This document shows, one piece after another, positions 7,256 to 35,110 of a stretch of 64,000 bases of DNA. Location: positions 1-64,000 of the forward strand of contig JASANE010000408.1 in the NCBI GenBank assembly GCA_030248225.1, read 5' to 3'. Each line of letters begins with the position of its first letter. Within the stretch, counting starts at the first letter, position 1. The position numbers were made by a program, and so were the translations under genes. Origin of the DNA: Trileptium ribeirensis (Eukaryota; Nematoda; Enoplea; Enoplida; Thoracostomopsidae). A model generated the notes under the pieces. It was given only the letters and a program-made list of their open reading frames with translations, had not been told where the DNA came from and did not search any database.

Positions 7256-7286
<31 letters not shown>

Positions 7287-7933: not shown

Positions 7934-7959
7934 AATCTGTCCTGAAATGAGGACAGATT
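7934..7959 (+). other. Perfect 10-bp stem-loop in LTR1
   Basis: AATCTGTCCT and AGGACAGATT are separated by six bases. This is one of several exact hairpins in the LTR (also 7310-7329, 7756-7776, 10016-10041). It is present in LTR2, and lost in LTR3 through the deletion near 55365. Confidence 0.6.
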
Positions 7960-12114: not shown

Positions 12115-12168
12115 CATCGTTGGGGGCCACACCGTGAGGCGTTCATTATTTTGTTCGACCCAACGATG
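12115..12168 (+). promoter_or_regulatory. Primer-binding site within a hairpin
   Basis: Four bases after the LTR1 end lies TGGGGGCCACACCGTGAG (12121-12138), in the position and with the initial TGG expected for a tRNA primer-binding site. It is almost the same in copy B (37731-37714, one change). The tRNA was not identified. A perfect inverted repeat (CATCGTTGGG 12115-12124, CCCAACGATG 12159-12168) folds around it. In copy B the stem has different bases but still pairs (ATGGGGG / CCCCCAT). Confidence 0.6.
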
Positions 12169-13518: not shown

Positions 13519-14870
13519 ATGGACTCGCACGCTGATCCGGATTTGGAAACCAACGACTTTCTTGGCTGGGCTGATGGACATATGGAGGAGGACTTACGTG
13601 CCAGGCCCCGACGTGCCGCCGGCACTAGTGAGCGACCGCTCACTCCCCCGCCCCGACGCCCTGGACAATTGCGCCGAGGAGAAACGTTCGAGTCACCTGG
13701 ACTGGATACAAGTACTGCTAACGCTATCCTACATCACCTGACTACCCAACCGGCTGGTCCTCCCATGATCCCTTTGAGAGACATGCCGACTTCTGATGGG
13801 AAACCCGGAGGCCAGGACTTCGAGGATTGGATTCGGATGTATAATCGTCTCGCCAACGCCAATGGTTGGGACGACCGTCGGAAATTGATTTGTGTTCCAG
13901 CTCTCTTGCGTGGACCGGCGAGGGAGGCCTTTGAGGGCCTTCCACCGGGAGAACGCCATAGCTTTCTAGGACTAATTGCCAACTTGCGCTTTTTATTTTC
14001 GTCATCGCGCCGCCATGAGAAATCATTGTCAGGATTGTGCACCCGACAACAAAGAGCAAATGAGCCAGTAGCGAGGTACGGCTTAGAATTGCAGAAGTTG
14101 TGTGATCGCGCTTTCCCTGACATGGAAGATGAGCAGCGGGACACGATGCTTCGTATGTTTTTCCAAAGAGGCTTAAGACCTGAGGTGCGTAGGCAGGTTG
14201 TTGAGTGTGAGACATTTCGGGATACCGTGGGTGTCCAAGCGGTACCAGGACGTTAGCGCTGCATGCCCTGAACCAGACGCGCCTGTCGCTAGTAAGCCTC
14301 GCGAAAAAAATGTAAACTCCTTACTTGAGGAAGGAGGTGAAGGCCTGATCACACAGCTTCAAAACATGATGGAGGAACATCGTAAGGCGAACCATAGAAA
14401 CAGCGATACGATCAGCTGGTTGCTGGATATAATCGATAAAACGGTCGAGAGCCCGCGCCAGCTTAACGCTCTAGCGCCGCCGTTTGTGCCCGGCTCACCT
14501 GCTGCGCCGCCGTGTTTGCCGATACCGCGCACTACTTGTTATCGCTGCGGAGAGCCAGGACACGTCATGCGCGAATGCCCGTATAACGTGCGTTATCCGC
14601 CTGCTGCCGTGAATGGTGCGCCGCGCAATGTCGATCCAGCCCCAGCATACGCATCTCGAGCCGCGCGTCGAGAGCCAGGGCAGCCAGGACCAAGAAATGG
14701 TGTGGGTGCATACCCACGAAACGATAACTATAATGCGAGCCGAGGAGGCCCACCGCCACAATTTCGGCGAGCTGAAAACGGAAACGGATACCGGAATAAC
14801 TCCGGGTGGAACAATCCACCCAATGCGGGAATGCGACCTAGCGGACCAAAACCAAGCGGGACCGCAATAT
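13519..14870 (+). pseudogene. gag: gag of copy A (capsid-like plus CCHC nucleocapsid), frameshifted
   Basis: The start is the ATG at 13519, matched by ATG 36502 in copy B (upstream codons differ and lack an ATG). After about 75 disordered Pro/Arg-rich residues comes a capsid-like retrotransposon gag segment (DMPTSDGKPGGQDFEDWIRM, PALLRGPAREAFEGLP), then a linker and a zinc knuckle C-x2-C-x4-H-x4-C at 14537-14578 (CYRCGEPGHVMREC), followed by an Arg/Gly/Asn-rich tail. Gag packages element RNA into particles. Breaks: relative to B, 12 bp are missing near 14200, and the reading frame changes near 14235 and again near 14850. It leads straight into the acidic linker with no stop expected in the intact form. 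Confidence 0.85.
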
Positions 14871-15824
14871 GGCCGACCACCGCCGGGATTCGCTAATAAT
14901 AATCGCGGAAACGGAGCATATGCCGCCAGCCGCCCAGTTGAAAACTATAACAACCGGACTGCACAGGCCTATGGGTACCGACGAGCCCAAAGCGAACGAC
15001 CCCAACCTAACAGAGGCATGGGGCCCCAGCAGCAACCTGGACGATTTTACCCCAGGGACGAGGGTAACCGAAACAGCATTGCTGTACCGCGTCGGCGATA
15101 CCAATTAAATTGTAGCGCATCGCAAGGTAATGGGAATAGAGAACCAAGCCCAGCTACCACTCATCGCTTAGAAGTACTCAGCCGTGAGCTCGGTATGATT
15201 CAGGGTAAACTAGGGCATAGTGAACCAACTGGACGAGTAAACGCTATTGCGACTACAGATGAACCACAGTGTGACGATGACGGATACTTGATAAACAGAC
15301 AAGATGACTTGGACGATTTTGAGATGATGGAAGGACTAGTTGAGAGACACCTGAATGCGATCACGACCACTTCGTGGACTGATGCCGCGCGTCTTCCACG
15401 GAGCCGTGATCTAGTTCAGGGTATGGACAGCCCCGGACTTATGGAATTGGGCCCAAGGGACATGGACGACGAACTACACAGTAACGAGTCTAACGGCACT
15501 GTATATAATAAAGAAAACACAAAATACCAAAAAGAGGGATACTTGGGAGAGGGAGTGTCTATGTTATGTGTGGACGCACCTAGCGCGTGTGTTGATCCAC
15601 GTGTATATATCCGCCAGCGAATTGAATGGTGAACAGCGAGGCGAGCGATGGTTCGATCAATCGAACTATCCGGCCATGCGAGGGCTCGGAATGAACGAAC
15701 GAACTTTAACCGCAGTGGAAGATAGTAATGGTAGTATGGAAATTTGTAAAGAAATGGAAGACGGTTGTGTTCAAAATTATAGGTTGAGAGATAATAAGGG
15801 AAGTGTTGAATTTATTACCGGTAC

Positions 15825-15883
15825 TCCCCAGGGAATCACCTCAAGGGGGAATTCCGGAACCCCCAGCTCTTTGGAGATGACTG
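15825..15883 (+). other. 59-nt block identical in copies A and B, with a self-complementary hairpin
   Basis: This stretch is identical to the reverse complement of 34121-34179 in copy B, including every silent position, while flanking codons differ. It contains GGGGGAATTCCGGAACCCCC (15845-15864): a GGGGG/CCCCC stem with a two-base bulge closing on the palindrome TTCCGGAA. A cis-acting RNA role (packaging, dimerisation or splicing) is inferred. Confidence 0.6.
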
Positions 15884-16365
15884 CAGAGATTGTGAGTGAA
15901 GATGATGTTGTTGTATTTGAAGAGCCATTATTATTATTTTCCTCCTCTGTGGCTGGCCATCCGAGAGAGTGTGTTGATGTTGATGATTCCGGCAGGGAAG
16001 CCGATGATGTTGATATGGCTCAGGAAGAATTGGATTTATTCGGGTCGCCGTGTGAGGTACCCATGGAGCTTTTAGAGGTCGGCGAACGACCAGGGACGAG
16101 GGAGGCTAGGTTGGACGATGAAGACGTCGCATCAGGGCCGCCTGGCCCTAGTCCCGTTCTAAATTGTAGGTCGTATGATGTAGTATGTGGACCGGACCGC
16201 CGCGCGGGCCGTCCCTTGTGTGATGATGAGAATTGTGTGTCGTATGAGTGTATTGATTTGCCTAAGTTAGGACGCGCTTGTAGCCTTAGCGAATTTTTGG
16301 AAAATGACGATGGAAGTGATGTTGATGTAATTGAACGCTACTTGGAGCCGGCGAAGTATGCTACT

Positions 16366-16463
16366 GATGGACTTGAGGTGACTTTCCCGACCTCATTGGC
16401 AAGGGGTTCCACGGTCATTGGGTCCTTCCTTGATGCTGACCGGGGCCGCCCTTGTCACCCGTA
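16366..16463 (+). other. 98-nt block identical in copies A and B
   Basis: It is identical to the reverse complement of 33536-33633 with no substitution, within a region where surrounding sequence and the RT gene differ at many synonymous sites. It is translated in the linker frame (LARGSTVIGSFLDADRGRP). The cause is either strong constraint on the nucleic acid or a gene-conversion tract. Confidence 0.65.
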
Positions 16464-18952
16464 CCCAAGCGGAGGTAGCGACGGGTTCGCGACCGATTGC
16501 ACCAATGAAGCGGGTATGATCGTTGGGCTGAAAGTATTGCCCGTAGTCTGCCCAGGTACGGGGATGTAGATGGCAGGGTGGCGAATAAAGACTGTCCATC
16601 GCATTGTGAAGCTTCCGTCGCGCCCACCGTCGTTGAAGCGCGCAACGACGTTACTTGCAATGAGTTAAGTTTTTTCAATGAATCTTGTGTTGAAATCAGC
16701 GTGAAGGATAGCACTGAGTGTGTTGAAAGTGGTGAATTGAACGAATTGGAGGAGTCGGATGAACTCCTATATGAACGAAGCGGATCCGCAACGAGCGATG
16801 CGAACTATTTCAGCGAAGCGAAAGTTTGTAATATAAGTCAGGATACCCAGCAGGAGACTGATCACGGTGGACATGAAGCAGAGAACGAGCTTGAATACGG
16901 CGAGACCGTTGTGCCAGATGAGCCTGATGATAGGTATGATGAATGCAGTGATAGTGAAATAGATGAGGAACGTATGCTGGATGATGAGGAATTCTGGGCC
17001 AATTGGGTGGATCCGAATGCCGACTGGTACCGACGCGAGCCCAGCCCTGATGATGGGGTGTGGGAAGTGCGTCGCGAACACAACAACGAACTACCGCGAG
17101 CACCATCTGATGACGGCATTGAGTTAAGCTTGCGAGCCAGCCAGTTGTCCATCCGTTCTGAAGAAGGACACGGTGCTGCCGGAGGAAACGATCTGAGTGA
17201 GAGCAGCGATAGTGGCAGTATCGCTACGGGAAGCGTGAACGAGATGAGTTCGGATCCACTGGTCGAAAACGGTCGTGAAGACCCTATCGAAGGGACGCCT
17301 TGTATGCGCCTGGGTAATTTAGGTAGCTCCACTGATACGTTGGCCGACATTTTCAGCGATATATTGGGACCCGTCGAAGAGGTGCCTAGTATGCCCTCGG
17401 GTAATTCGGGTAACCCAAACGAAGTAGGAACGACCACTGAGGAATCCGCCGAAGGGAGACCATGTAGGTCCCCGGATAATTCGGTGGAATCTGTGAGCGT
17501 GATTAGCGAGGACTCGGACGTGTGTATGGGACAAGAGAATTTGTTTAATTTCATACGAGAAGCTAACGATGACCGCATACACCAACTGGACGAACGACTA
17601 TTGGACATGTCTGGACTTTGTCTCCCCAATAATACGCCGATAGAACTTGGACGAGTTAGAGCGATGACGGACGAGGAACGTAACCGAATCCTCGGGACTG
17701 ACACATTGTTCACTATTACCGCAAATCATACCGAGACCGCAGCTTATCAATTCACTCGCACAGACTTGACCGAGGATGCGCATAACGAGTCAGCTGAGGG
17801 ACTTATACTAATCAACTTTAGGGCTAGTGAGATTAATGCCGACTTCGGACAACCTTTGACATTGCAGCCGCAGGCTCTCTTCTATCGGAGGGTAATACTT
17901 GTGATAGAACAGCTAAACAATCTGAGCCGACTTTTTGAGCTTCGTTTTGAAGTTAGCACACGCCCCACTTTACAGCGAGACGCTGCTATGCTGAGCAGTA
18001 CATTAGGCATGGCTTCCCCAATTGGGCACTGCATGACTGGAATGTATCTTGGTCCCGTAACTCTTGCTTCGTTGGAATCTTTTATACAACTGGTGGGCCA
18101 ATGCGTGAATGGCCACACGCTCCAACAGGTTATTGAGAGAGAATTCGAGGTGGAGTTGAGTAGGGATCCGGTATGCCGCCAGTGCCAGGAATGTCATACA
18201 AGAGATTCGCGGGACATAGGTTCAGGCTGCTACTTTTTCGGTCAACGAGGAAGGTGGACTTACGAAGGTACGCTGAGTACCGCATGCTCGTCCATCTTCC
18301 CGGATGGATACGTTGCACCTCATTGGCCTTTCTATGTCGGAATTCAGTCGGCCAAAATGCAGAAAACTTTCCGCGAGGCTAACCTCGAGTTACACGACCT
18401 CTTGTGCGAGGCGCCCTATTTGATCGAATTCATCTATCGGAACCAAGACACCATGGTGTTCCGATCAACCTCTTTGTTGACCAAGCAATAAGTAATATGG
18501 AATTTGACGACGAAACCCACCGACTTGCTCGACTAGTACTGTTGAGCACACGCTTGAGACTTTTGCGGCGCCCCGACATCGCTGGACTGCTTGAGACAGA
18601 GGGCGACACGTCTGCTGGATTGAGATTGGGCAGGGACCGCTTAATTTCGGAACTATGCTTGTTTCCGGACGATGACACCAACTGTTCCGTCCCGAATTTG
18701 GACGAACAATTAACCACAGCGCTAGCCGCTTACGTCGACTCATCCGACGAAGAGTCGGAGGATAACTCCAATAGCGACTCCGCCCAGCAAGGAGGCATAA
18801 CTGGGTCGAGTGAGACGGAAACGAGCGACGGGGAAACCAAAAGCGACACCACGGAAGAACCTGCGCATAACGAGACCATGAGGGAACCCAATCTAAACGG
18901 GGTACGATCCGTTTCACCGAATCTTTGTAACGGCGTCGGACATCCTTCAGGC

Positions 18953-20816
18953 ATGTGGAGGGTCTGTACAATGCTGTTGTTACTTTGGCTCTCAGCGCTC
19001 AGCTCTACCCGTGCAACGCTTTCGCCATTTAGTGACTCAATCTCGCGATTAGGTGCTTTTGTCAATCGACAAGTGGGAGTGGTCATCGAGCCCCAAGGCT
19101 TGGTGGTCACCTCCGACCAGACAACGCATTTGCCAGTGGTATTGCAGTTATCACTTCGAGATTGGGAACGTAAGTCCGATCCTTATGTGAGTAAATTCTG
19201 TCCACCTTATGAAGCGAACGGATCATGTCGTGCTGACTGCTGCCGGAAGGTCAACTGCACCGAATACCCACAGTTGCACGAAACCCTAAGCGCTTTGGAA
19301 CGCGAACTAGATGACGCCTATCATGGCGTACTGGACACCAATTATTACTCGCTACTTGTGCACTCTTTTTGCGTCGCGAACGAGCAACTATGTGACCTTA
19401 CGAATAATAGAGAAAAGCGCTTTGCCATCCTAATCGCTGCCACCGCTGGTGCCTTCTCAGGTTTCTTAGGCCTGGGAATGGCTTTTGCCAATGGAGTACA
19501 CATTAACAATGTTCGTCAGCAAGTAACTGTCCTCGAGAAATTAATGCGTGAGACGAACGATGTCTCCTTTCGAAATACTAAGGCCATAAGGCAACTGACT
19601 CGAGCAAATGAGGACATCTACGCATTTCTACACCATAGCATGCAAGAGGTGGTCTCTATGATCGAACAGGTTAGTGTGCCGATCAGAAAGGGATCGCGCA
19701 CGTGCACCAACAGCTAATAGATCACATCCTTCGAGCCAATATGCGCTCGTCGGTACAAGCTATAATGGAGTCCATGCTTAACGGCGAACTATCTCCCGCC
19801 GTCATCGATGTCGTCATGCTACGACGATTATTTTCCATGGATCCACGCATTTCCAAGACTATCCTCATGCGCGAGCCTAGCCTCGCCTATCAATTCGGTC
19901 GCGTCATGCCTGTAAGTGTAGATTTAACCACATTCCGCTTTGGATTCATCTTGCAATTACCATTGCCGATGCGCAATGATGTTCGACCATATTTTCGGAT
20001 ATATAACACTGGCTGGACCGCACCAGCCACGCTGACGCAGCTGAGATTGCCGCTGCCTCAATACGCCGCCCGCTTGGGGCACATTCGTTTCGAATCACTC
20101 AATTTAGGAGCATGCAAGCAAAGACCAGGAATCGCTTTCTGTGAACTGCACGCGCTGATAACTGACCATAGCACTAATTGCTTGGAATGGATTATTGCAG
20201 GTGAACACTTACCTGAGGCTATTAAACATACATGCAGCAACCGTTCCCTGATAGGTCCACTTGCTAATGACACGTACGTGCACACGACTATACAAGGGGT
20301 ACTAATTCGGACTAGTGAACCTGAGGTCATATTGACAAATCGAAGGCAACTAGCTCACGTTACGTTAGGTAAGACAATAAAGGTACCGCCTAATGAAGTT
20401 TTGTGGTTCCCACACGGAAACTACACTCAGTTAGTCATAGGGTCAATAGTGCTCACTAGCATGTTGAAACCCGAGAAAATTACAATAAAATTTGGACCCA
20501 ATATTACTATTGACCGGCTTTCGGGTATCAAGTTAAGACCTCTGACTTGGGACTCACTCGACAACACCAAGCCTATCAATTTCGGGTCGCGCAGATAGCT
20601 AAGGATCATGTCCGTAGCGTGGTTAATCTTCCCGCTGTGGACTACACGGGATTCTTGCCCTACTTCCTCATCACCGTCGTTGTAGGACTGATCAGTCTGA
20701 TTTATTTTATGACTAAATGCAAGGTCCCACCTAAGTACGGATATTATATTCCCCGATGGTTCCCATGTCGTGGACGACTAATTAGGACCGATACTAAGCC
20801 TAAGAAAGCTATTTGA
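18953..20816 (+). pseudogene. env: Env-like fusion glycoprotein of copy A, frameshifted
   Basis: Order of parts: a signal-peptide-like segment from Met 18953 (MLLLLWLSALSSTRA); a Cys-containing ectodomain; a furin-type site REKR (cleavage after 19420); a hydrophobic Ala/Gly-rich fusion-peptide-like stretch; a heptad-like helix; a larger ectodomain with N-glycosylation-type sites; and a transmembrane helix (about 20649-20712) with a basic, Cys-containing tail. This is the layout of class I-type envelope proteins, as in errantivirus/baculovirus F proteins. It lies between gag and protease, not after integrase. Breaks: frame changes near 19670 and 20560, and a stop at 20814-20816. The gene is non-functional as read. 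Confidence 0.8.
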
Positions 20817-21455
20817 TGGATTAGAGCGAAGCACCGACTACCGAGTGCCCCACCCGCGGAGGACGACTTCCCTCATACAGACAGAACTTCGCCGACCGAG
20901 GTCACGGTTGGGCCTTCGGGAACGCCGCGCGTGTCCGTCGCGTCCAGCCGTGCCCCACGTCGCTCAAACAGACTATTAACATCACGTAACTCGTCCGAGG
21001 AATAACTTGTCTTCATCGAGGACGACGAGCTATTTGTCGCGCCCACTCGTGATTCACGTCGTGGACCTCGCCAAGGCGTGTTTACCAGACAGTTGAACAC
21101 CATGAACGCAGGTAACACCCCACTGCCCATTAACGCAACAATACTTGGTACCCCAGTCATGACCCTTGTCGACACTGGAGCCGACGTCTCAATCATGTCC
21201 CAAGCACTAGCTGCCCGTTTAGGACTGGTTCCTCGTGACACGAACACTACCCGTATAGTATCAGCTATACAACAAGAATTGACGAACAGCGGAGTAGTAA
21301 AAGCACCGATCACAATAGGATCGTTAAGTACACCGTACGACTTTCAGGTAACAACAGACACACCGTACGAATGCATCTTAGGTACCGACTTCATGGCATT
21401 ACTACCATATGTCGCCCTAAACTTCAAAGACCGCTGCCTGGATCTATCTAACTGA
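20817..21455 (+). pseudogene. pro: Aspartic protease of copy A (with upstream linker)
   Basis: After the Env tail the same frame continues through a Ser/Pro/Arg-rich linker (with an in-frame stop at 21006-21008) into a retropepsin. The active-site motif DTGADVSIM begins at 21171, and a later hydrophobic ILGTDFM segment follows near 21378. The enzyme would process the polyprotein. It is interrupted by a TGA at 21453-21455, where copy B has a sense codon (Gly). It is located directly downstream of the Env membrane anchor. Confidence 0.82.
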
Positions 21456-23340
21456 ACTGAAAACTGCTCGGCGCCTTTCGCCGACCAAGGGGATTATAGA
21501 CCGTCAGTTATCAACGTAGTAACTAGGAAATACACTCAAGTACCACCAAACACAGAGTTGTTCATCAACGCCATCCCGGAGATCACTCAACCACCGACCG
21601 GCCAAGCTTTATTTGTGCCTGACCCTTTCATCAGGGACGTTGCTATTGCCCACTCTCTGGTACTCACTGGCCAACGTATGATCCCAATAGCGCTGATGAA
21701 CTTTGGAAACTTTCCCGTTGCCATACACGCCGGACAGACAATAGGACATATTGAAATGCTTGATGACAACGAGGTCGAGTTCTTATACGACAGTAACAAG
21801 CGTTTGCTACAGCTTGATCCTCCAAGACGCACTAAGCAATGCAACAATATCGGAGTTACACGAGATAATGTTGTACAAATCATAAGCGAACAGAAAAAGA
21901 CAATTGACACCGAACGATCCATACAAGTTTTGAGTAAAATTGATTTCGGACAAACGACCCTTAACCCTTTCGAGCTTAAACAATTGAAAACAACCATCTC
22001 TGAAAACGCAGACATATTCAGTGTACACCCGTTCGATGTGGGAAGGTGTGGTGTACACCAGCACAGGATAGTCACTGGAGACGCAAAGCCTATTAAACAG
22101 GTACCATACCGCCTAGCACACTCATTGCGAGAGCCCTTGCGCGAGGAATTAAACAATTCATAACGCCATCGGGTTCACCTTCGGGTTCTCCCATAGTTTA
22201 CGTCACCAAAAGTGACGGTACCTTACGGTTGTGTGTCGACTTCCGTAAGCTCAACGTAGTTGCGGAACGTGACTTATACCCACTACCCCGCATAGATGAC
22301 ATACTGGGATGTCTCAGAAACACCAAATTCATGTCCAGCTTAGATCTTAACAAAGGCTTCTGGCAATTAGAACTGGACCCAGAGACCAAGGAGAAAACCT
22401 CATCCGTCACTGTCCACGGACAATATGAATACAACGTTCTGCCATTCGGACTGAATTCCTCACCAGGCGCCTTTCAAAGGTGCATGTCAATCATATTAAA
22501 GGGCTTAGAATGGGAACGATGCCTCATCTACATAGACGACATATTGGTCTTTTCACCCACATTTGAAGAACACCTAGCGGACTTAATTACTGTAGTTCAT
22601 AGGTTTCGTAAAGCAAATCTCAAATTAAAACTCTCCAAATGTCAGTTTGGACAGAAACAATTGAAATACCTGGGACACATCATCAGCTCTGAAGGGGTTA
22701 AACCCGATCCCGAAAAAACCGCTGCTATAGACAATTACAAACGGCCGGAAACTCTCAAACAATTGCAGAGATTCTTAGGACCTGTAGGATACTATCACAA
22801 ATTTATACCATACTACTCTGAAATCTGCGAACCACTCAACGCATTTCGACGAAAGGACAGCGAATTTAAATGGACACCGCAATGTGAGGAAACATTCGGA
22901 AAACTACGTAAGGCCTTGGTACAGGAACCATTACTCATATATCCGGACTTTTCTAAACCCTTCATACTCCAAATGGACGCTTCTGGATACGCCCTAGGGG
23001 CTGTGATTTCGCAAAAGACCGATAAAGGGACACTGCGAATCGCCTACGCGAGCAAATCGCTCGTGGACTATCAACGCCGATATCCCGACATAGAGACTGA
23101 GGCTCTTGCCATACGATGGGCTGCCTTACATTTCAGACACTACCTACTTGGACACGAATTCCACGTTGAGACTGACCATAAGCCACTTAAGGCCCTGTTC
23201 GAGAGACCACCGCGAAATTCGCGACTAGCTCAATGGCGTAACGAATTACTGATGGAATTCGGTGGTTTCAACATTGAATATAGGCCAGGCAAGGCTAATG
23301 CCAACGCCGACGTACTTTCACGCGATCCTCGACATGACGT
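21456..23340 (+). pseudogene. pol: Reverse transcriptase and RNase H of copy A
   Basis: Starts with the PR-RT spacer, then RT: YRLAHSLREPLREEL, LCVDFRKLN, LDLNKGFWQ, LPFGLNSSPGAFQR, and the catalytic YIDD box at 22529-22540. The connection domain and RNase H follow, with DASGYALGAV (about 22977), ETEALAI and TDHKPL (about 23172), and chromatin-type end RPGKANANADVLSRDP. This is the classic Ty3/gypsy set. RT copies element RNA to DNA; RNase H removes the RNA strand. Breaks: a small deletion with frame change near 22160. From 22229 onwards the frame is uninterrupted into the Pro-rich linker. Confidence 0.9.
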
Positions 23341-23923
23341 AGAATTTTCTTACTCTTCGGACGAAGCTGAACCGGACGAACAGAACCATCCTCGAATGGT
23401 TGCTGTAGCTGTTAAAGGACAGGATCGTGGTAACGGCAAAGCCCCAGCTAAACCACCCCGCCGATTTCCTACCGAAGAAGTTTGGAAACGACTTACTCGG
23501 CAACTCATGGGACTTTCCCCAGACGCTCCTGTCACCCTACCACCTGAGTATGTTCGGGAACGCTTCTATCGTATGTTTGGAGGACCTGGTTATGATCCCC
23601 TACCGGATCTAACACGCTTCATCTTCTGTGGAGACGTAGACGACCCCTGGCCTGAAGGAGTCGAGATACCCTGGAAACGAACGACTGCCCCAGGACCGCC
23701 AGAATCCACTGGTGAACCGACCCATGGATCTTCTTCTGCACCGGACCCCTCCGCTAGACCCCCACAGCCTCAAGAACCCCCGACCGCTCCAACACCGCCT
23801 GCGCCTGGTGCGGCGAGTGAGAGCTGGACCCGTGCCACGGATGGTACACCTGAAACCACTAGACCACGGACGCTACCGACAAATGCTAGACAGAGATATG
23901 GAGGTTTACCTGAAGTAGAGGAA
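23341..23923 (+). pseudogene. Pro-rich linker between RNase H and integrase (copy A), truncated
   Basis: Starts with a short ordered piece (PPEYVRERFYRMFGGPGYDP) and turns into a Pro/Ala/Thr-rich stretch of about 100 residues. It is matched in copy B at 26580-26030. The element is cut at 23923, where the sequence switches to an antisense LTR fragment, so copy A has no integrase here. The open frame runs on by chance to 23989. Confidence 0.8.
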
Positions 23924-25172
23924 TCGGCCCCGGACGTCTCTGCGTCTTTTGTTTTCTCTTCGGTTGCTCGTTTTTTTGCCTCCCTCTAACGGTGTCCTTT
24001 TTATTTCACTGCAATATTGCAGTGTCTCAACTGCATTGTACTGCAGTCGAGTTATCACCGACTCAATAATAAAAGTCGATGTGTTCCTATGGCTGAATGG
24101 CTAAGACCTATAAAACTGCGGCGGACTTAAATTCTCCGTGCAGGTTCAACTCACTAACTGGTAAAACAGCACTGGCTGATACTGAAACTGTAGAAAAAGG
24201 GATACTGAGCATACATAGTACATAGCCTAACGGGCAAACCGAGTTAAAATCAAAGAAAAGCTAAACTCAGCGATCAACTCGCTTCAAAGAGAAAAAGGGG
24301 TTTTGCACTCGCCCGGTTTGGGGCCGAAACGGCCCGGGCGAGGAGGTGAGTCTTCTTTATTTTTAGAAAGTCCTAAACTTTTGTTTGAAGGCGGGGACAC
24401 AATGTGTTTCTCCCGCAACGGCGGTTTCTAGTGATTGCGCAGGGGCAGGCTTTAATTTTGTTTCCTTTAGACCATGGTCTCTAGAGAAGACCATTGCGTA
24501 GGGCAAGGGTGAACGCCAGTAAATTTAATCGTTTTAGTCACATAGTTATTTGGAGTCAAAACTGGTGCGTCACCACAAAACGATGCACCATCGTCCCAGG
24601 TCAATGTCGGCGAAATTTTGCTCAGCTGGGGGCGTGCTCCTCCAGCTCATTTTGATCACACGGGTGTAAGGGGACAGATAAAGATTTTCCGGTCAGTCGT
24701 CCTAACAAGATGGGTGCACAAATGAGATGCCTACCGAATGCGTCGTTTATGTGCTCTAAAATCAGATCCAAGCAGAGTAAAGCATCCTGAGTAAAGATGA
24801 TTTCGAGACAACATTTCGTGAGAGCAGCAAACACCTTAAGCTCAAGTTAACGTCCCTAGAATTTGTTTAGTCTTTTGAGTGCCCAAATTTTCTTAGCTCA
24901 GAAGAACAAAACGAAATTTTGAGGGTTTCCTAAAACCCGACGAAGGCTAGTCCTCCGTCCCTAATCTGCGATTCTGTCCAAGCTCACACACGGCATGAGC
25001 ATTGAACAGTCCACTAAGCTGCAAATTTGGAAAACCATCAAAGCAAACCATTGAACAAGACCTTATTTTGTGGTATGCACGTTCAAGAAATTTTACCGTG
25101 GTCGGCTAGGGAAAATTCGTCGATCCTAACTCAAAAGAAGCAAGTCATGTAAAGTCTGGACGTGAAGCGTCG
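23924..25172 (-). repeat. Family 2 LTR fragment (remnant of the 3' LTR of copy B)
   Basis: About 1.25 kb nearly identical (about 11 differences by eye) to 39269-40507 inside the antisense LTR at 37737-43092. It is alignable, in reverse orientation, to LTR1 9000-10090. Both LTR ends are missing: the left end is joined to copy A's Pro-rich linker and the right end to copy B's integrase. The simplest view is that it is what remains of copy B's 3' LTR after two deletions. Confidence 0.82.
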
Positions 25173-25700
25173 ATTTCTCCGTTGGCTTTTGGGTTGTAAC
25201 TCAAAGTTTCTCGTTTAAAAGTGTGTAATCTAGCACATAGGGCTTCCATGATTTCTGAAACGAAGCATCCTCCTCGATCGGAAACTAGTTCCTTGGGAGC
25301 GCCATAGCGACATACTACATCTTCGACGAAAACTCGAGCTACACTCTTAGCTGTTTGGTCAGGCAGAGCGGCGGCAATGACTAACTTGGTGAATTGGTCA
25401 ATGAAGGCAATGACGTACCGATTTCCCTTTCGGGACAAAACCCGAGTATCCAATATGTCGATAAACATGCGGTGCATAGGGGCGCTAGCCAGCAGGTTAT
25501 CTCCGAGCGCGGCTCGAATATTTTGTGGTAGATTTCGGGATCGCTGGCAAAGTACGCACCGTTTTACGTATTCGTCGACGTCCTTACCCATGGTTTCCCA
25601 ATAGTAGAACTGCTTGAGCTTACTCAGTAGACGATCCCTACCTGGGTGTCCACCGAATCAAGTGTCGTGTTCGTGTTTGAGTATCTGTCGTATAAGCAGC
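25173..25700 (-). pseudogene. int: Integrase of copy B (zinc finger and catalytic core), truncated
   Basis: Read on minus, an HHCC finger (HEHDT...GGH, then CVLCQRS near 25560-25540) is followed by the catalytic core: first Asp in FIDIL, second Asp in LVSDRGGCF, and the Glu in NPKANGEI just before the break. These are the D,D-35-E residues that insert element DNA. A stop lies inside the finger near 25657, and the gene is cut at 25173, where it runs into LTR sequence. The missing C-terminal part is represented by the separate fragment at 48149-48732. Confidence 0.85.
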
Positions 25701-26600
25701 CGAGGTACGCATAATTTAGGTCTATGGTCGTTAGGCATGATGGGATGCAAGTAAAGAATGGCTGTGTCAGGGCAGAGACGGTAGTGATGGGCTTTTAATT
25801 TGAGAGCAGTAGCTGCCTTTTCGTCAGCTGGTGGTTGTCAAGCGTGTAAGTACCACCATATCGGTCCAAACTGTTTGTCTCTACGTTGGATGTAAGGTAT
25901 GTAATTGAGAAGATTTCTCCCCTCATATTGTTGAAAGTGTGGTAAGTATATGTGTTCGCCAGTGTCATAGACCTGTTCAGGGCGTTGTAAACGTACTTTT
26001 GGTCCACACGCATAAGCGACCCTAATTAAGGTATCGAACTCCTCGACTTCTGGTAAACCACCATATCTTTTCCTAGCAGTTGTTGGTAGTGTCCGGGGTC
26101 TAGTGGGGTCAGGTGTACCAGCAGTGGCACGGGTTGAGCTTTCGCTTGCCGCGCCAGGGGCAGGCGGTGTCGGAGCAGTCGGGGGTTCTTGTGGCAGCGT
26201 AGGTCTTACGAATGGATCAGGGGCTGATGAAGGTCCAGGGGCTGAGTCACTCACATGTTCTTGAGTTGGGGCTGGTTCAGTCGGCGGTCCGGGAGCGGTC
26301 GTTGGTCCGGGAGCAGTCGAGCGCCTCCCGGGCACCTCGACTCCTTCAGGCCAGGGGTCGTCGATGTCTCCACAGAAAATGAAACGCGTCGGGTCGGGTA
26401 GAGGATCATATCCTGGTCCTCCGAACATACGGTAGAAGCGTTCTCGAACGTACTCGGGTGGGAGGTTAACGGGAGCGTCTGGAGGAAGTCCCATTAACTG
26501 TCGCGTAAGTCGCTTTCAAGCTTCTTCAGTTGGGAGTCTCCGCGGTGGTTTGGCAGGAGCTTCGCCCTTGCCACGATCCTGTCCATTCACAGCTACAGCG
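25701..26600 (-). pseudogene. Pro-rich linker between RNase H and integrase (copy B)
   Basis: It matches copy A 23400-23923: PPEYVRERFYRMFGGPGYDP, then about 100 residues dominated by Pro, Ala, Thr and Ser, then an ordered stretch (EVEEFDTLIRVAYACGPKVR) leading to the integrase finger. The frame differs from RT/RNase H (change near 26600), and a TGA stands at 25838-25840. The role of the insertion is unknown; such a long insert between RNase H and integrase is not typical. Confidence 0.75.
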
Positions 26601-28722
26601 ACCATTCGAGTATGGTCCTGCTCGTCGTGTTCGTCGTCGTCAGCGGAGTCAAGAAGTCCACGTCATGTCGTGGATCGCGTGAAAGTCCGTCTGCGTTGGC
26701 ATTGGCCTTACCAGGGCGATATTCAATATTGAAACCACCGAATTCCATGAGCAACTCATTTCGCCATTGGGCTAGGCGTGAATTTCTCGGTGGTCTCTCA
26801 AATAGTGCCTTAAGTGGCTTATGATCGGTCTCGACATGAAATTCATGTCCAAGCAAGTAATGCCTAAAATGTAGAGCGGCCCATCTGATAGCAACGGCTT
26901 CGGTTTCAATAGCGGGGTATCGGCGTTGGTAGTCCACTAATGATTTGCTAGCATAAGCGATTGGCAATGTCCCTTTACCGGGCTTTTGCGAGAGCACGGC
27001 TCCTAGAGCATATCCTGAAGCGTCCGTCTGTAGTATGAAGGGTTTGGAAAAGTCCGGGTAAATGAGTAGTGGTTCTTGTACTAGTGCTTTGCGTAGCTTT
27101 CCAAATGCTTCCTCGCATTGCGGTGTCCATTTAAATTCGTTGTCTTTACGCCGGAGGGCATTGAGTGGTTCGCAGATTTCGGAATAGTGTGGTATGAATT
27201 TGTGGTAGTACCCTTCAAGTCCTAAAAAGCTCTGTAATTGTTTAAGTATCTCAGGGCGTTTGTAGTTATCTATTGCGGCAGCTTTCTCGGGGTCAGGTTT
27301 GACTCCTTCAGAGCTAATAATGTGTCCAAGGTATTTTAATTGTTTCTGTCCGAATTGGCATTTGGAGGGTTTCAGTTTGAGATTAGTCTTGCGAAACCTA
27401 TCGAAGACTGTGATGAGATCTGCTAGGTGTTGTTCGAATGTGGGTGAGAAAACTAATATGTCATCTATGTAAATGAGACACCTTTCCCATTCCAGACCTT
27501 TTAAAATGATTGACATGCATCGTTGGAAGGCGCCTGGCGAAGAATTTAAGCCAAAGGGTAAGACATTGTATTCATACTGTCCATGGACAGTGACAAAAGA
27601 GGTCTTTTCCTTGGCTTCGGGATCTAATTCCAGTTGCCAAAACCCTTTGTTTAGGTCCAAAGTCGACATAAATTTGGTGTTTCGCAGACATCCTAATATG
27701 TCGTCTATGCGGGGTAATGGGTACAAGACGCGTTCGGCGACTACGTTGAGCTTACGAAAGTCAACGCATAAGCGTAAAGTGCCGTCACTCTTAGTGACGT
27801 ACACTATGGGGGAACCCCATGGTGATTCGGATGGTGTTATAGGGCCTGCTTCTACCATGTTGTTGAGTTCTTCCCTCAAGGGTTCGCGTAGAGAATGTGC
27901 CAAGCGATATGGCACTTGTTTTATGGGTTTCGCGTCCCCAGTGATTATCCTATGCTGGTGTACACCACACCTACCTAGGTCGAATGGGTGCACGCTAAAT
28001 ATGTCTGCGTTTTCGGAGATGGTTGTTTTCAGTTGTTTCAGTTCATAGGGGTTAAGTGTAGTCTGCCCAAAATCGATCTTGCTCAATACTTGTATGGAGC
28101 GTTCCGTGTCGATTGTCTTCTTTTGGTCGTTTATGACCTGTACTACGTTGTCGCGTGTAACTCCTATGCGGTTACATTGTTTGGTGTGTTGGGGAGGCCC
28201 GAGTTGGAGTAGACGCTTGTTGCTGTCGTATAAGAGCTCAACCTCATTGTCGTCAAGCATCTCGATGTGTCCTATTGATTGTCCCGCGTGTATTGCAACG
28301 GGTAGGTTTCCAAAGTTCATCATTGCCACTGGAATCAGGCGTTGACCAGTGAGCACTACGGCATGTGCGATGGCGATGTCCCTAATGAAAGGGTGTGGTA
28401 CGAATAGTGCTTGGCCGTTGGGCGGTTGTGTGATCTCGGGGATGGCGTTTATGAACAGTTCGGTATTCGGCGGTATTTGTGTATATTTTCTGGATACTAC
28501 GTTAATGACGGGCGGTCGATAGTCTCCTTGGTCGGCAAAGGGCGCGGAACAGTTCTCAGTTCCGTTTGACAAATCCAAACGACGGTCCTTGAAATTTATG
28601 GCTACATACGGTAGTAGGGCCATGAAGTCTGTACCCAAGATACATTCGTACGGTGTGTCGGTAGTTGCTCGGAAGTCGCATGGGGTGCTTAGCGAGCCTA
28701 TTGTAATTGGGGCTTTCACCAC
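26601..28722 (-). pseudogene. pol: Reverse transcriptase and RNase H of copy B
   Basis: This is the longest clean stretch of pol here. It runs from the protease end through the PR-RT spacer, RT and RNase H in one frame. RT carries LCVDFRKLN, LDLNKGFWQ and YIDD at 27471-27460. RNase H carries DASGYALGAV, ETEAVAI and TDHKPL, and ends RPGKANANADGLSRDP. The domains are full length with catalytic residues present. Protein similarity to copy A is high, while silent sites differ often. Upstream a TAA (28751-28753) splits it from the protease active site; downstream the frame is lost near 26600. Confidence 0.9.
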
Positions 28723-29234
28723 TCCGCTAATTGCCAGCTCCTGTTGTGTTGCTTATACTATACGGGTGGTGTTAGTGTCTCGGGGCACTAAACCTAAACG
28801 GGCAGCTAGTGCTTGTGACATTATTGAGACGTCAGCTCCGGTGTCTACAAGTGTCGTGACGGGAGTGCCGAGTATGGTTGCGTTGATGAGAAGTGGGGTG
28901 TTGCCTGCATTCATTGTGTTTAGTTGTCGGGTGAACATACCTTGGCGATGTCCACGGCGCACGTCACGGGCAGGAGCAGCGAATAATTCGTCATCCTCTA
29001 TGAAAACAAGTTCCTCTTCGGACGAAGCACGGGTGGTCAATAGTCTGTTAGAGCGACGCGGGGCACGATTGGACACAACGGACACGCGCGGCGTCCCCGA
29101 AGGTACAATAGAGACCTTGGTCGGCGAAACTCGGGGTGTACTGTTCTCCTCAGGTGGTGCGCTAGGGCCTCTTTTGTCAGCTCTGATCCACCTAATTGCT
29201 TTTCGGGGCTTTCCGTCCGTTTTGATCAATCTCC
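28723..29234 (-). pseudogene. pro: Aspartic protease of copy B, continuous with the Env tail
   Basis: The Env membrane anchor, a Ser/Pro/Arg-rich acidic linker (SSEEELVFIEDDELFA) and the retropepsin share one frame with no stop between them. The active site DTGADVSIM begins at 28845. A TAA at 28751-28753 interrupts the protease about 30 codons later; copy A has Ser there. The continuous frame is direct evidence that protease follows Env in the same polyprotein in this family. Confidence 0.85.
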
Positions 29235-31056
29235 CGCGGCATGGCAGCCATCGGGGTAGGTAGTATGCGTACTTAGAAGAAACCTTGCACTTGGTCATAC
29301 AGTAGGCCAAGCTAATTATGCTGACAACGATGGTAACTATGAAGTAAGGCGAAAGTCCGGTATACTCTAAAGCAGGAAAGTTAACTATCTTTTGTACTTG
29401 TTCCGTGGCTATCTGGGCTACTTGTAAGTAGGTCGTCTTAGCATCATCGAGCGAACTCCAAGTTAAAGGTCTTAATTTGAGGCCGGTGAGCCGGTCAATT
29501 GTAATGTTTGGTCCAAATTAAATCGTAATTTCCTCTGGCTTTAACATGCTTGTTAGTACAATCGATCCTACGACTAACTGTGTATAATTTCCGTGGGGAA
29601 ACCATAAGATTCCGTTGGGTGGAACCTTAATAGCCTTACCTAGGGTTATGTGCGCGAGTTGTCTACGATTAGTCAGTATAACTTCGGGTTCACTAGTCCT
29701 AATTAATACGCCTTGAATAGTAGTGTGTACGGCTGTATCGTTGGCGAGTGGGCCAATAAGCGTGCGGTTGCTGCATGCGTGTTTGGTGGATTCTGGCACG
29801 AATTCACCTGCGACGATCCACTCTAAGCAGTTTGTGCTATGGTCGGCTAGTAACGCGTGGGGTGCACAAAAAGCAATCCCGGGTCTGTGCTTGCATGCAC
29901 CTAGATTCAGCGACTCGAAACGCGCATGTCCCAGTCTGGATGCATATTGCGGTAGCGGTAGTTTCAGCTGCGTAAGCGTGTCAGGAGCGTTCCAACCTGT
30001 ATTGTAGGCCCTAAAATAAGGTCGAACATCACTACGTTTAGGCAAAGGTAGCTGCAAAATAAAGCCAAAGCGAAATCCAGTTAGATCTACACTTACGGGT
30101 ATCACTCGACCAAATTGGTATGCTAGACTGGGTTCTCGCATCAGGATGGTTTTAGAAATGCGGGGATCCATGGCGAATCGTCGTCGTAGCATGACGACGT
30201 CGATAACAGCAGGGGAAAGTTCACCATTTAACATAGACTCCATAATGGCCTGTACCGACGAACGCATGTTCGCTCGAATTATGTGGTCGATCAATTGATG
30301 GTGGACGTGTGTGACCTCTTTCTGGTCAGCACAGCGTACCTGTTCAATCATCGAGACTACCTCCTGCATGCTGTGGTGTAGGAATGCATAAATGTCCTCA
30401 TTAGCTCGGGTTAATTGCTTTATTGCTTTAGTGTTCCGAAAAGAGACGTCATTCGTCTCGTGCATAAACTTTTCGAGAACGGTCACTTGCTGACGTACGT
30501 TATTAATATGAACGCCGTTAGCGAAGGCCATTCCTAAACCTAGAAAACCAGAAACAGCGCCGGCAGCGGCGGCGATTAAGCTTGCAAAGCGTTTTTCTCG
30601 GCGGTTGGTAAGGTCACATAGGTGCTCGTTCTCTACGCATAAGGAATGCACGAGCAGCGAGTAATAATTAGTGTCTAGTATGCCATCATATGCGTCGTCC
30701 AGTTCGCGTTCTAGTGCGCTCAAGGTTGTGTGCAGCTGCGGGTACTCAATACAGTTCGCTTTCCTGCAGCAGTCAGCTCGGCAGGATCCATTAACTTCGT
30801 ACGGTGGACAAACATTGCTTACGTAGGGGTCCGATTTGTGTTCCCAATCTCTCAATGACAGCTGCAGGACCACCGGCAAGTGCGTAGTCTGATCAGAGGT
30901 GATTACCAAACCCTACGGTTCGACAACAACACCTACTTGGCGGTTTACAAACGCACCTAGTCGCGAGATTGCATCACTGAAAGGCGACAGCGTGGCGTGC
31001 GTAGAGCTTAACGTCGAAAGCCAAAGTAACAGTAAGATGGTACAAACTTTCCGCAT
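29235..31056 (-). pseudogene. env: Env-like fusion glycoprotein of copy B, two stops
   Basis: Met 31056 opens a signal-peptide-like segment (ILLLLWLSTLSSTHA). A Cys-rich ectodomain follows (VNGSCRADCC), then a furin-type site RREKR with cleavage between 30589 and 30588, an Ala/Gly-rich fusion-peptide-like stretch, a heptad helix, a large ectodomain, and a transmembrane helix at about 29345-29300 with tail CMTKCK. The whole is in one frame with the upstream linker and downstream protease, apart from stops at 30915-30913 (TAG) and 29520-29518 (TAA). Known env genes of gypsy/errantivirus and BEL elements lie 3' of pol; here it precedes the protease. Confidence 0.82.
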
Positions 31057-34000
31057 ACTTGTATTCTGACCTAATCCGCTATTTAGGCCAGGTGAAGAGG
31101 GTCGGGCCATCTTTCGGGGAGGCTCCGACACATCCTCGCTGTCCACTACTTGTTCATTAATAGTTCCACTCGGGGTTCCCTTATCAACTGGTCGGATAAT
31201 CTCGACAGTTGGTTCATTCTGCTCATCAAGATCCTTTTCGGAAGCGTTTAGACAGTCGGCCATCGCTAGGGCCAGCTGTTCGTCCAAGTCTTGAGTAGAG
31301 CTGCTGATACTGCTGCGTCGGAGTGAACACGGTTCCGAGATCAGGTAGTCTACTTCTACGTGCTCACCTATTGTCATACCACACTCAATTTGGAGCATAT
31401 TAACGCTAGCCGGACGTCTCAGGAGTCTCAAACGCGCGCACAAGAGCACTAGGCGGTCCCGTCTATGGGACTCGTCGGTAAACTCCATGTTGTTCATTGC
31501 GTATTGGACAAAAGTAGTTATTGGGACTCCTTCACTGCCCTGGTTCCGATAGATAAATTCCAACAGCTGAGGCGCTTCGCTCAGCATCTCGTGCAAATCG
31601 ATATTGGCGGCGCGTGAGAGCCGTTGCATTCGGGGCGTCTGAATACCAATATAGTATCGCCAGTTAGGTATTATGTACCCGTCGATGCGGATAGAAGCGC
31701 AAGCAGTGCTTAAAGTACCATGGTAGTTCCATTTTCCGTGGTGTCCGACAAAATAACAGCAAGGATCAACGCTCGATTTTTGTCGGCTATGACTCCTCCT
31801 ACACTCTTGACACATTGGGTACTTGCTCAGCTCTGCCTCAAATTCCTTCTCCATGACTTGCTGGAGCGTGTGGCCATTCACGCATTGACCCAACAATTCC
31901 ATGAGGACTTCCAACGAAGCAAGAGCCACTGGATCGAGGTACAATCCAGTTACACGGTGGTCGATAGGGGAGGCCATACCTAGAATACTGCTCAACATGG
32001 CAGAATCTCGTTGAAGAGCGGCGTCTTCACTACACTCGAAACGAATGTCGAAAAGCCTACTCAGGTTGTTCAATTGTTCCATGGCTAACACAACCCTTCG
32101 ATAGAAAAGAGCCTGAGGTTGTAACACCACAGACTGTCCGAAGTCAGCGTTTACCTGACCTGCTCTAAAGTTAATCGGAATAAGACATTCGGCTACAAAG
32201 GGATTCGAATTCTCAGCTACTTCGAGGCGCGGGTATTGGTAATTCGAGGTCTCGGTATGATCGGTAGAAATGGCAAACAATGTGTCTGGTCCCACAATAC
32301 GGTTCCGTTCATTCGCCGTCAACGGGCGGATGTGTCCTCGTTCAATCGGGGTGTCGTTAGTAAGATAAAGTCCGTACATGCGATGCAATTGCTCATCCAG
32401 TCGGCGTGTTCGTTCGTCGTTAGCGTCCTGTACAAAGTCAAGTAATTGTCTTCGTCCCATACATGCCTCTGAATGTTCACTAAATATGGCTACGGATTCC
32501 TCCGAATTACCCGGGGACATACCTGGTCTCCCTTCGACGGATTCATCCTCAGCTGTCTTAGGTTTCTCAAGCGGGCTATCCGAATTACCCGAGGGCATAC
32601 AAGGCACCTCTTCGACGGATCCCAGAATACTGCTAGAAACATTAGACAAAGCATCAGTGGACTCACCTAAATTACCCGGGCGCATACGCGGCGACCCTTC
32701 GATAGGATCCTCCCCTGCACTATTGTCCAATTGAGCCAATCTCAACTCGCTCGCATCCAACGACTCATTCTCGTCACTGTCTTCTTCGGTGGTCTCATTC
32801 TCCTCATCCTCGCTGGTGGTATCATCAGCGTCTTCGGAGCGGATTGACAAATGACTTGTTCGCAGGCTCAAGTCAACACCTTCGTCCGATGGTGCTCGCG
32901 GCAACCCATTGTTTCGGCGCGCTTCCCACGCCCCTTCACGGCGCCACTCTCGTGCATCGGGGGTGGGTTCACGTCGGTACCAATCGGCGTTCGGATCTAC
33001 CCAATTAGCCCAGAACTCTTCGTCGCTCAATAGTTGTTCCTCGTCGAGTTCACTCTCACTGGATTCACCATAACTGTTGTCGGAGTCGTCCAGAGCATTG
33101 GTTATTTCATACTCAGGCTCACTATCCTGCTCATCCTCAAAATCACTATGTGCATGTGCAGTGCTTTGACTTAGATTAGACACTTTCGCTTCGCTTAAAC
33201 GATTCGCTTCGCTCGCTGTGGATCCACTTCGTTCAAATAGGAGCTCAACCGACTCCTTCAATTCACTATTCTTCTGATCAACAATATCATCAACCACATC
33301 AACTGCATCACGCAAGTCATTGAAAGAACGTAGCTCAGCATGGGGAACGTTACTGCGCGCTTCAGCAACGCTTGGCGCAACGGAAGCCTCACAATGCGAT
33401 GGACGGCCTTTATTTGCCACTCCGCCATCAACATCCCCGTATCTGGGCAGACCCCGGGCAATACTTTCAGCCCCAATGATCATACCCGCTTCATCGGTGC
33501 GAACGGTCGCGAACCCGCTGCTACCTCTGCTTGGATACGGGTGACAAGGGCGGCCCCGGTCAGCATCAAGGAAGGACCCAATGACCGTGGAACCCCTTGC
33601 CAATGAGGTCGGGAAAGTCACCTCAAGTCCATCGGTGCTATAATTGCAAGTTCAAAATAGCACTCAATTACATCAACATCACTTCCATCATTATCCGCCA
33701 TAAATTCACTAATACTGCAAGCGCGACCTAACTTAGACAAATCAGCAAGTTCATACGACACACAATTCTCATCATCACACAAGGGACGACCCGCGCGGCG
33801 GTCCGACCCACATACTACATCATACGACCTATAATTTAGAACGGAACTAGGGGTAGGCGACTCTGATGAGGCCTCTACATCGTCGGACCTAACCTCCATC
33901 GTCCCTGACCTTCCATCGGTCTCCAAAAGCTCCATGGGTGTCTCACACGACGACCCGAATCGATCCATATCTTCTTGAGCCATATCAACGTCCTCGGCTT

Positions 34001-35110
34001 CCCTGCCGGAATAATCATCAACAACACCAACCACGCTCTCTATCGGATGGCCAGCCACAGAGGAGGAAAATAATAATAACAATGGCTCAAATACATCAAC
34101 ATCATCATCCACTTTCCTTCCAGTCATCTCCAAAGAGCTGGGGGTTCCGGAATTCCCCCTTGAGGTGATTCCCTGGGGACTGTCGGCAATAAAATCATCA
34201 CTTTCCTTATACTCACTTAACCTATAATTTTCAACATAACCGTTCTCCACTTCTTCACAAATCTCAACACCATCATTACTACCTTCCAATGCAATTAACG
34301 TTCGTTCGTCCATTCCAGGCCCACGTATGGCCGGACAGTTCGATTGATCGATCGGTCGCTCGCCTCGCGGTTCGCTTTCTAAATCGCTCGCAGATGTATA
34401 TACAAGTGGATCAAAACCTGCGCTAGGTATGTCCACACATGACAGATACAATCCCTCTCCCAAATAACCCCCTTTTTGAAATTTTCTATTTTCGGTGCTA
34501 TATAGTACAGTGCTGGTGCTATCGTCCAAGTGCTGTTCATAGTCAGTGTCCGTTAAGCTCAATGTCCTCCCTTCGAGACTGTCGATCGGCGTGAATGGAC
34601 TACAACTCCGAGGAGGACGCGCGGCGTCAGCCCAAGGAGCGGTCGTAATCACATTCAAATGCCTCTCAGCAAATCCGTCTGTCATCTCAGAAAAGTCCAT
34701 GTCATCGTCGTCTCGGTTCATTTCATATCCTTCATCGTCATACTGCGGTTCGTCTGCAATTGCAATAGCATTCACTCGTCCAGTCGGGGCGCTATGTCCT
34801 AATTTACCCTGGATCATGCCGAGTTCGCGGCTGAGCACATCTAGACGATGGGTGGTGGCTGGGCTAGGGTCACGATTACCTTTGGTTTGCGAAGCACTAC
34901 AGTTCAGTTGATATCTGCGGCGCTCGCCTGCACCTCCGTTCCTATTTCCTCCGTTTCCTGCATAGGGACGATTTACCTGTTGCGGTGGACCTATATTGCG
35001 CTCGAACTGCGGTCGCTCATTAGCGACTCTCTGGTATCCATTAGCCTGTCCTGGCCGATTGTTATACATAGCGGGTTGTCGGTTACCTGCGTAGTCTCCG
35101 TTTCCGCGAA
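31057..35110 (-). pseudogene. Long acidic linker region between gag and env (copy B)
   Basis: This is the counterpart of 14871-18952 and the better copy: one 903-codon frame runs from 33621 into Env. It is Asp/Glu/Ser-rich, with three spaced E-x2-P-x-M-x2-GN repeats (near 32705-32510), and then a folded-looking part with helical segments and a Cys patch (CQECRRSH near 31815, DPCCYF near 31760). The frame changes near 33645, just upstream of the 98-nt identical block. No known domain is recognised. It could be an extended gag, a scaffold or a spacer that positions Env. Confidence 0.72.

What the first reader, a model, noticed from the sequence alone, without database searches (positions are those of the whole stretch)
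15825..29310. Env encoded between gag and protease in a gypsy-type element
In both copies a signal peptide, furin-type site, fusion-peptide-like segment and membrane anchor lie upstream of the protease active site. In copy B, linker, Env, protease and RT share one frame apart from point stops. Known env-bearing LTR elements (errantiviruses, BEL/Pao elements with env, vertebrate retroviruses) carry env 3' of pol. A gag-env-pol order in one polyprotein is, to my knowledge, undescribed or very rare. Two independent copies in opposite orientation argue against an assembly artefact.
Basis: partly seen in the sequence, partly recalled or inferred. Interest (0 to 1): 0.95.

Follow-up and report, generated by a model that had tools for sequence, protein, structure and literature searches.

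The report
Giant retroelement with Env inside polyprotein
In this animal-like genome window two old copies of a very large virus-like mobile element carry a conserved, envelope-like fusion protein between the capsid gene and the enzyme genes; this layout was first reported in flatworm Burro elements, and here it appears with a different envelope protein and in what looks like a separate branch.

Summary
Copies A (+) and B (-) share gag, a long linker, signal peptide, furin-type site, fusion-peptide-like segment, ectodomain, membrane anchor, then PR-RT-RNase H, colinear. In B, linker-Env-PR-RT-RH is one frame of 2,353 codons with 3 internal stops; the other two forward frames hold 148 and 182. 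A and B are near synonymous saturation, yet Env protein change is low (omega about 0.02-0.03, like PR/RT; dN two to three times theirs). Constraint starts at the signal peptide. So Env was a selected part of a replicating element here. LTRs are 5.4-6.8 kb. A partial third copy (C) shows integrase tail, a NADAR domain, then LTR, with no Env-like segment found. The novelty claim fails in part: Arkhipova & Yushenova 2019 (PMC6431247) reported in-frame env between gag and pol in planarian Burro elements. This element differs in Env (no match to the chuvirus-type family), accessory domains and probably RT branch. A database protein, P0072, has the same order with an unrelated chuvirus-type glycoprotein and a distant RT. 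Probable convergence: a new variant of a known kind. Env fold and expression remain unproven.

The parts
5348..12116 (+). 5' LTR of copy A (U1), 6,769 bp, TGTAACAGG...TTATTACA
5344..5347 (.). CATA, left half of a putative 4-bp target-site duplication of the whole array
   Evidence: right half at 59569-59572
12117..12145 (+). putative primer binding site region, TGGGGGCCACACCGTGAGG, 4 nt after the LTR end (tRNA not identified)
   Evidence: sequence; near-identical stretch in copy B, 5 nt after its LTR
13519..14896 (+). copy A gag (Retrotrans_gag below curated cut-off; CCHC knuckle motif from 14537), in two frames
14613..18952 (+). copy A linker between gag and Env, several frames, no Pfam family in the pieces scanned
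18953..20816 (+). copy A Env: signal peptide 18953-19015, NREKR 19406-19420, fusion-peptide-like from 19421, anchor 20652-20708
21006..21455 (+). copy A aspartyl protease (LVDTGAD 21165-21185)
22097..23922 (+). copy A RT and RNase H; the copy breaks off at 23922
23923..25176 (-). fragment of the 3' LTR of copy B, 11 mismatches in 1,254 bp to its 5' LTR (40521-39268)
25148..25657 (-). copy B integrase fragment (H2C2 and rve), truncated at about 25177
26593..28900 (-). copy B PR (LVDTGAD 28851-28831), RT (YIDD 27471-27460), RNase H
29200..31056 (-). copy B Env: signal peptide 31056-30994, RREKR 30603-30589, fusion-peptide-like from 30579, anchor 29355-29299
31057..35138 (-). copy B linker between gag and Env; from 33651 in the Env-pol frame
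34991..36556 (-). copy B gag frame (Retrotrans_gag below cut-off, zf-CCHC, motif from 35461)
37737..43092 (-). 5' LTR of copy B, 5,356 bp; it abuts at 43093 a stretch like the one that precedes U3, so B probably inserted there
43258..48146 (+). truncated LTR (U2), 94% to U1, preceded by 165 bp like those that precede U3
48147..52759 (+). copy C 3' internal region: integrase C-terminus 48154-48474, further ORFs, NADAR ORF 50729-51472
52760..59568 (+). 3' LTR (U3), 6,809 bp

Best explanation
This is a giant Ty3/gypsy-type retroelement whose Env-like, probably class I fusion glycoprotein is an in-frame domain between gag-linker and PR-RT-RH-IN. Shown: domain order in two diverged copies, one shared frame in B, strong purifying selection on Env (omega like that of RT, dN somewhat higher), long LTRs, no Env-like segment found in the one 3' region seen. 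Inferred: a long Gag-Env-Pol product is made; Gag stays cytosolic; the internal signal peptide sends the Env segment into the ER; the anchor brings the chain back so that PR-RT-IN are cytosolic; host signal peptidase and furin cut Env and the element's own protease frees Pol. The topology is the kind used by alphavirus structural polyproteins (capsid, signal, envelope; recalled). Env would then clothe particles and let the element pass between cells.
For: Pfam gag (weak), CCHC, aspartyl protease, RVT_1, RNase H, H2C2 and rve; best solved relative of RT-RH is Ty3 (4ol8, 1.3e-84). Env dN 0.06-0.14 with dS at or near saturation, omega 0.019 and 0.029 where computable, against 0.016-0.025 (dN 0.034-0.060) for PR, spacer, RT and RH (dS this high is rough). 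pN drops from 0.344 to 0.056 between the 200-base step before and the one beginning 16 bases into the signal peptide. Furin site, adjacent hydrophobic segment and anchor in both copies. Env relatives P0001 (46% over 297 aa, with an R-x-K-R site) and P0122 (begins at the signal peptide) in other data. The 3 stops in B fit decay after insertion: 1.1 expected from LTR divergence, P(3 or more) 0.11. Copy C: no hydrophobic segment in the 4 ORFs of 150 aa or more tested.
Against: No intact copy seen; the gag-linker frame changes in both A and B, so one continuous Gag-Env-Pol frame is not shown. Env pieces match no Pfam family at E up to 10 beyond rows under the curated cut-offs. Both AlphaFold runs failed (pLDDT 30 and 34). 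A Met stands at the signal peptide in A, B and P0122, which also suits a separate RNA. The copy C test would miss a short signal peptide and did not cover shorter ORFs. Only 2 copies with the full order, from one window; the host-genome search did not complete.
Confidence: 0.72

Rival explanations
1. Same gene order, but Env (or Env-Pol) is translated from a spliced or internally started RNA that begins at the Met of the signal peptide, so the shared frame mainly serves to attach Pol behind the anchor.
For: Met precedes the signal peptide in A and B, and P0122 starts there. Insect errantiviruses make env from spliced RNA (PMC12992720, passages seen). The weak constraint upstream and sharp onset at the signal peptide suit a separate start.
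Against: Linker and the start of Env are in one open frame in B over 33651-30913; the linker, though fast, is under weak protein constraint (omega 0.17-0.46). About 120-140 nt around the start were printed but splice sites were not scored.
Confidence: 0.35
2. The domain is a membrane protein of another kind (for example a fusogen-like accessory or a decoy) and not a working viral envelope.
For: No Pfam match above a cut-off, no usable fold model.
Against: Signal peptide, furin-type site directly followed by a hydrophobic segment, glycosylation sequons and a C-terminal anchor: the layout of class I fusion proteins (layout recalled).
Confidence: 0.15
3. Order is secondary: A and B descend from one rearranged or chimeric copy, and working elements elsewhere carry env 3' of IN.
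For: Only one 3' region (copy C) could be read and it is partial.
Against: Synonymous saturation with Env constraint in the same frame points to long replication in this order; no Env-like segment found in copy C (with the limits named there).
Confidence: 0.04
4. Chance ORFs or an assembly artefact.
For: None found.
Against: Colinear homology in two diverged copies, 3 stops against 148 and 182 in the other frames, Env relatives in other data.
Confidence: 0.01

Closest known systems
Burro giant gypsy-like LTR elements of planarians (Schmidtea, Dugesia; PMC6431247)
   Same: Gypsy-type; giant LTR element (over 30 kb there, about 31 kb by summed pieces here); env homology in-frame between gag and PR; proposed to be integrated proviruses
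   Different: Burro env hits mononegavirus glycoproteins and its ORF1 carries BCL2, BIR, MATH, SUMO-like domains; here none of these was found in the 4 linker pieces scanned, Env has no match to PF24664, and a NADAR domain lies 3' of IN
P0072, unnamed database protein of 1,251 aa (ENA source)
   Same: Membrane-anchored viral glycoprotein directly upstream of PR-RT-RH in one open frame
   Different: Glycoprotein is Monjiviricetes_fusion (PF24664, 9.6e-77); RT lies elsewhere in the tree (grouping rejected, AU p 0.007). It may itself be a Burro-type element; organism unknown
Errantivirus / Metaviridae with env
   Same: Ty3/gypsy pol; an Env with membrane anchor
   Different: ICTV: Metaviridae env is encoded downstream of integrase (PMC7879559, whole text); in insect ERVs env comes from spliced RNA (PMC12992720, passages)
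P0002 and P0013, JGI proteins
   Same: RT 69% identical, nearest rows in the RT trees
   Different: Fragments that start within RT; what lies upstream could not be seen

Membership tests
Ty3/gypsy (Metaviridae) | PR-RT-RNase H-IN domain order with gypsy-type RNase H and H2C2/rve integrase | tested here: met
   IN seen only as fragments in B and C
Ty3/gypsy (Metaviridae) | LTRs with TG...CA ends, PBS, short target-site duplication | tested here: met
   LTR ends and CATA flanks; the PBS is putative, its tRNA not identified; the CATA match is 4 bases only
Metaviridae with env (ICTV description) | Env encoded downstream of integrase | tested here: not met
   Env lies before PR in A and B; 4 copy C 3' ORFs have no hydrophobic segment or R-x-[KR]-R site
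Burro | env in-frame between gag and PR | tested here: met
   copy B; continuity with gag itself not shown
Burro | mononegavirus-like Env | tested here: not met
   no PF24664 match at E up to 10 in 4 window Env pieces, P0001 and P0122 (HMMER drops most matches above 0.1); P0072 gives 9.6e-77 in the same library
Burro | BCL2, BIR, MATH, SUMO-like domains in ORF1 | tested here: not met
   no Pfam family at E up to 0.1 in 4 of 4 linker pieces scanned; diverged domains could be missed
Burro | total length over 30 kb | tested here: inconclusive
   no complete copy; lengths of pieces of different copies add to about 31 kb
Burro | same RT clade | tested here: inconclusive
   no certified Burro RT at hand; P0072 as stand-in is rejected
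Burro | planarian host | not testable with these tools
   host unnamed; the genome search did not complete
Class I fusion glycoprotein | signal peptide, furin-type site next to fusion-peptide-like segment, anchor | tested here: met
   both copies; signal peptide by eye
Class I fusion glycoprotein | class I fold | tested here: inconclusive
   models with pLDDT 30 and 34

The most novel reading that the evidence does not exclude
In-frame gag-env-pol has arisen at least twice in the gypsy group with unrelated fusion proteins (chuvirus-type in P0072, a class I-like one here). It would be a recurrent virus body plan: a single Gag-signal-Env-anchor-Pol chain threaded through the ER membrane, making giant, 30-kb-scale enveloped retroelements.
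Probability: 0.45. Interest if true: 0.8.

Novelty: new variant of a known kind. Interest (0 to 1): 0.62.

Why it matters
Env behind pol is the usual layout. A second, differently built case of Env inside the gag-pol frame, kept under strong selection, would show that the layout is workable and recurrent. It makes testable how such an element controls the ratio of Gag, Env and Pol and how its protease acts beside a membrane anchor. It also widens the set of fusion proteins that gypsy elements have taken up.

Tried and rejected
Env relatives in viral contigs: 3 scans with Env queries, one with the whole of P0072, one with PR-RT; no confirmed locus. Genome contigs: 2 scans, with P0001 and an RT alignment, none. 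Protein searches: Env piece 1 hit, Env pair profile 2 hits, in both only the 8,000 candidates sharing most words were scored; PR-RT 1,207 hits of which 120 were listed. Among those 120, a simple hydropathy test flagged two: P0072, with a 620-residue extension before PR, and P0084, with a 52-residue extension, not pursued. The 1,087 unlisted hits were not seen. Solved structures for Env: one chance-level row. Rfam on the whole window: no match at gathering thresholds. No tRNA gene. Cause of the slow-changing linker block: no frame besides the linker's is open throughout in both copies (the best other, antisense, has 3 stops in A and 5 in B) and fold z-scores of 4 stretches were -0.93 to 0.82. 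Both structure models were too poor to search with; no fold search was made. Chary & Hayashi 2025 (eLife) on env-carrying gypsy elements is not held and may hold more prior art. Grohme 2018 is not held. Ten literature searches were made (one search was rejected for a bad term). Of the papers opened (passages only except PMC7879559 whole and PMC6431247 section 7), only PMC6431247 states an in-frame gag-env-pol order. PMC9040795 and PMC10175614 were seen as listings and not opened.
Full report
What is there. Two copies of one retroelement lie in opposite orientation, A on the + strand and B on the - strand. BLAST of the window on itself gives 13540-18561 against 36475-31424 (72.7%) and 18953-23922 against 31056-26040 (76.7%), colinear; a global alignment of the two stretches gives 77% over 10,182 aligned bases. 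Both hold gag (Retrotrans_gag below its curated cut-off in both; CCHC knuckle above its cut-off in B), a long linker, an Env-like domain, aspartyl protease, RT and RNase H; B adds an integrase fragment with H2C2 and rve. The best solved relative of RT-RNase H is Ty3.

The Env-like domain. Signal peptide (by eye), furin-type site, an adjacent hydrophobic segment and a C-terminal anchor are present in both copies, all before the protease motif. The anchor-to-protease distance is about 450 bases in each. The part between signal peptide and cut is about 135 residues, the part from cut to anchor about 410; this proportion resembles paramyxovirus/baculovirus F proteins more than retroviral SU-TM (comparison recalled, not tested). 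No Pfam family matches above a curated cut-off; P0001 has a sub-threshold row for DUF5644 (0.0056). Relatives found among 5.8 billion proteins: P0001 (46%) and P0122 (44% over 22% of the query), both short.

Frames. In B the four ORFs 33651-30913, 30912-29518, 29517-28753 and 28752-26593 abut in one frame. Over these 2,353 codons there are 4 stops, the last being the end at 26593, so 3 internal; the other forward frames have 148 and 182. B's two LTR pieces differ at 11 of 1,254 positions. At half that divergence about 31 substitutions and 1.1 stops are expected in this stretch, so 3 are not surprising (P 0.11; indels ignored). A is more decayed: its ORFs switch frame 8 times, and in the frame of B it has 6 stops in the segments. 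A gag-linker frame change occurs near the same place in both copies but with a different shift (my arithmetic and 18 coordinates), so whether gag was in the same frame, or joined by a programmed shift, is open.

Selection. Codons aligned without gaps and without a stop in either copy were compared; all others were dropped. dN/dS: gag 0.14/1.24; linker 0.20/0.44, 0.17/0.43, 0.24/1.41; Env 0.064/saturated, 0.082/4.2, 0.136/4.6; after the anchor 0.147/1.12; PR 0.039/1.62; PR-RT spacer 0.060/2.77; RT 0.039/2.39; RNase H 0.034/1.38. Env dN is thus about two to three times that of PR/RT, with omega of the same order. The stretch 31350-31060 was not in this call but is. dS values near saturation are rough. 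In the two other frames omega ran from 0.92 to 4.2, with up to 63 stops per copy in a segment. In 200-base steps pN falls from 0.344 (31240-31040) to 0.056 (31040-30840) at the signal peptide (Met at 31056) and rises to 0.214 and 0.165 (29440-29040) around the anchor and its tail. Env was thus preserved as protein during separate long histories of the two lineages.

The element as a whole. LTRs begin TGTAACAGG and end TTATTACA: 5348-12116, 52760-59568, 43092-37737 (minus), and one with a lost end, 43258-48146. CATA stands left of the first and right of the last LTR (5344-5347, 59569-59572), so 5348-59568 is probably one insertion site holding a tandem (A, then C) with B nested in it; a 4-base match is 1 in 256 by chance. 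The 3' ends of A and B are lost: 23923-25176 is a B-type LTR fragment. Copy C (48147-52759) shows the 3' internal region. P0013 residues 326-564 match B's integrase and 638-744 match copy C, so both belong to one kind of pol. After the integrase, C has ORFs without hydrophobic segments or furin-type sites (4 of 4 of the ORFs of 150 aa or more; shorter ORFs were not examined and the same test misses the short signal peptides of A and B) and a NADAR domain (2.5e-16; 8bau 1.2e-4).

Comparison with the known. Metaviridae env is described as downstream of integrase (PMC7879559, whole text). Arkhipova & Yushenova 2019 (PMC6431247; section 7 read whole, other passages) state that Burro env lies in-frame between gag and pol and call it the first case. 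Among the 120 listed PR-RT relatives one, P0072, joins a Monjiviricetes fusion glycoprotein, a hydrophobic segment, PR, RT and RNase H in one open protein. It fits the published description of Burro env but its organism is unknown. In a careful tree of 39 rows (window B and 38 rows chosen by me from the 120) the window's RT groups with P0002 and P0013 (100/100), and holding P0072 with them is rejected (AU p 0.007). The group was named after I had seen the quick tree, which weakens that p. In the 122-row quick tree the deep forks were weakly supported (91) and P0072 sat on a long branch. A blastp of the window Env pieces against the P0072 Env gave nothing better than E 1.4. The simplest reading is two separate cases; one ancient origin with later Env replacement is not excluded.

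Limits. The host genome could not be searched in 22 tries. No metagenome contig could be fetched. Both structure models failed. The most relevant recent paper (Chary & Hayashi 2025) is not held.

Noticed in passing
window 34300-33440 (copy B, minus) and about 15825-16460 (copy A): In the linker, synonymous change falls to 0.10-0.16 (pN 0.07-0.17), and exact matches of 59, 37, 38 and 98 nt occur, while most flanking coding sequence is near saturation. No shared second ORF and no RNA fold signal. A DNA or RNA signal, or exchange between lineages, would explain it.
   Followed up: partly
window 50729-51472 (+): NADAR-domain ORF between integrase and 3' LTR; members of this family can remove ADP-ribose (recalled), so a role against host ADP-ribosylation is possible.
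   Followed up: partly
window 61965-62426 (-) and 5073-5333 (-): A YibB/HtrL-like host exon lies on one side of the array (6.3e-6) and a possible further exon on the other; the latter alone has no match, and the joined pieces match across the joint but without a better score. The array may sit in an intron.
   Followed up: partly
window 1-1821 (-): Start of another LTR of the family on the minus strand, running off the window's left end.
   Followed up: no
LTRs at 5348-12116, 37737-43092, 52760-59568: LTRs of 5.4-6.8 kb, far above the U3 and U5 sizes that ICTV gives for Metaviridae (PMC7879559).
   Followed up: partly
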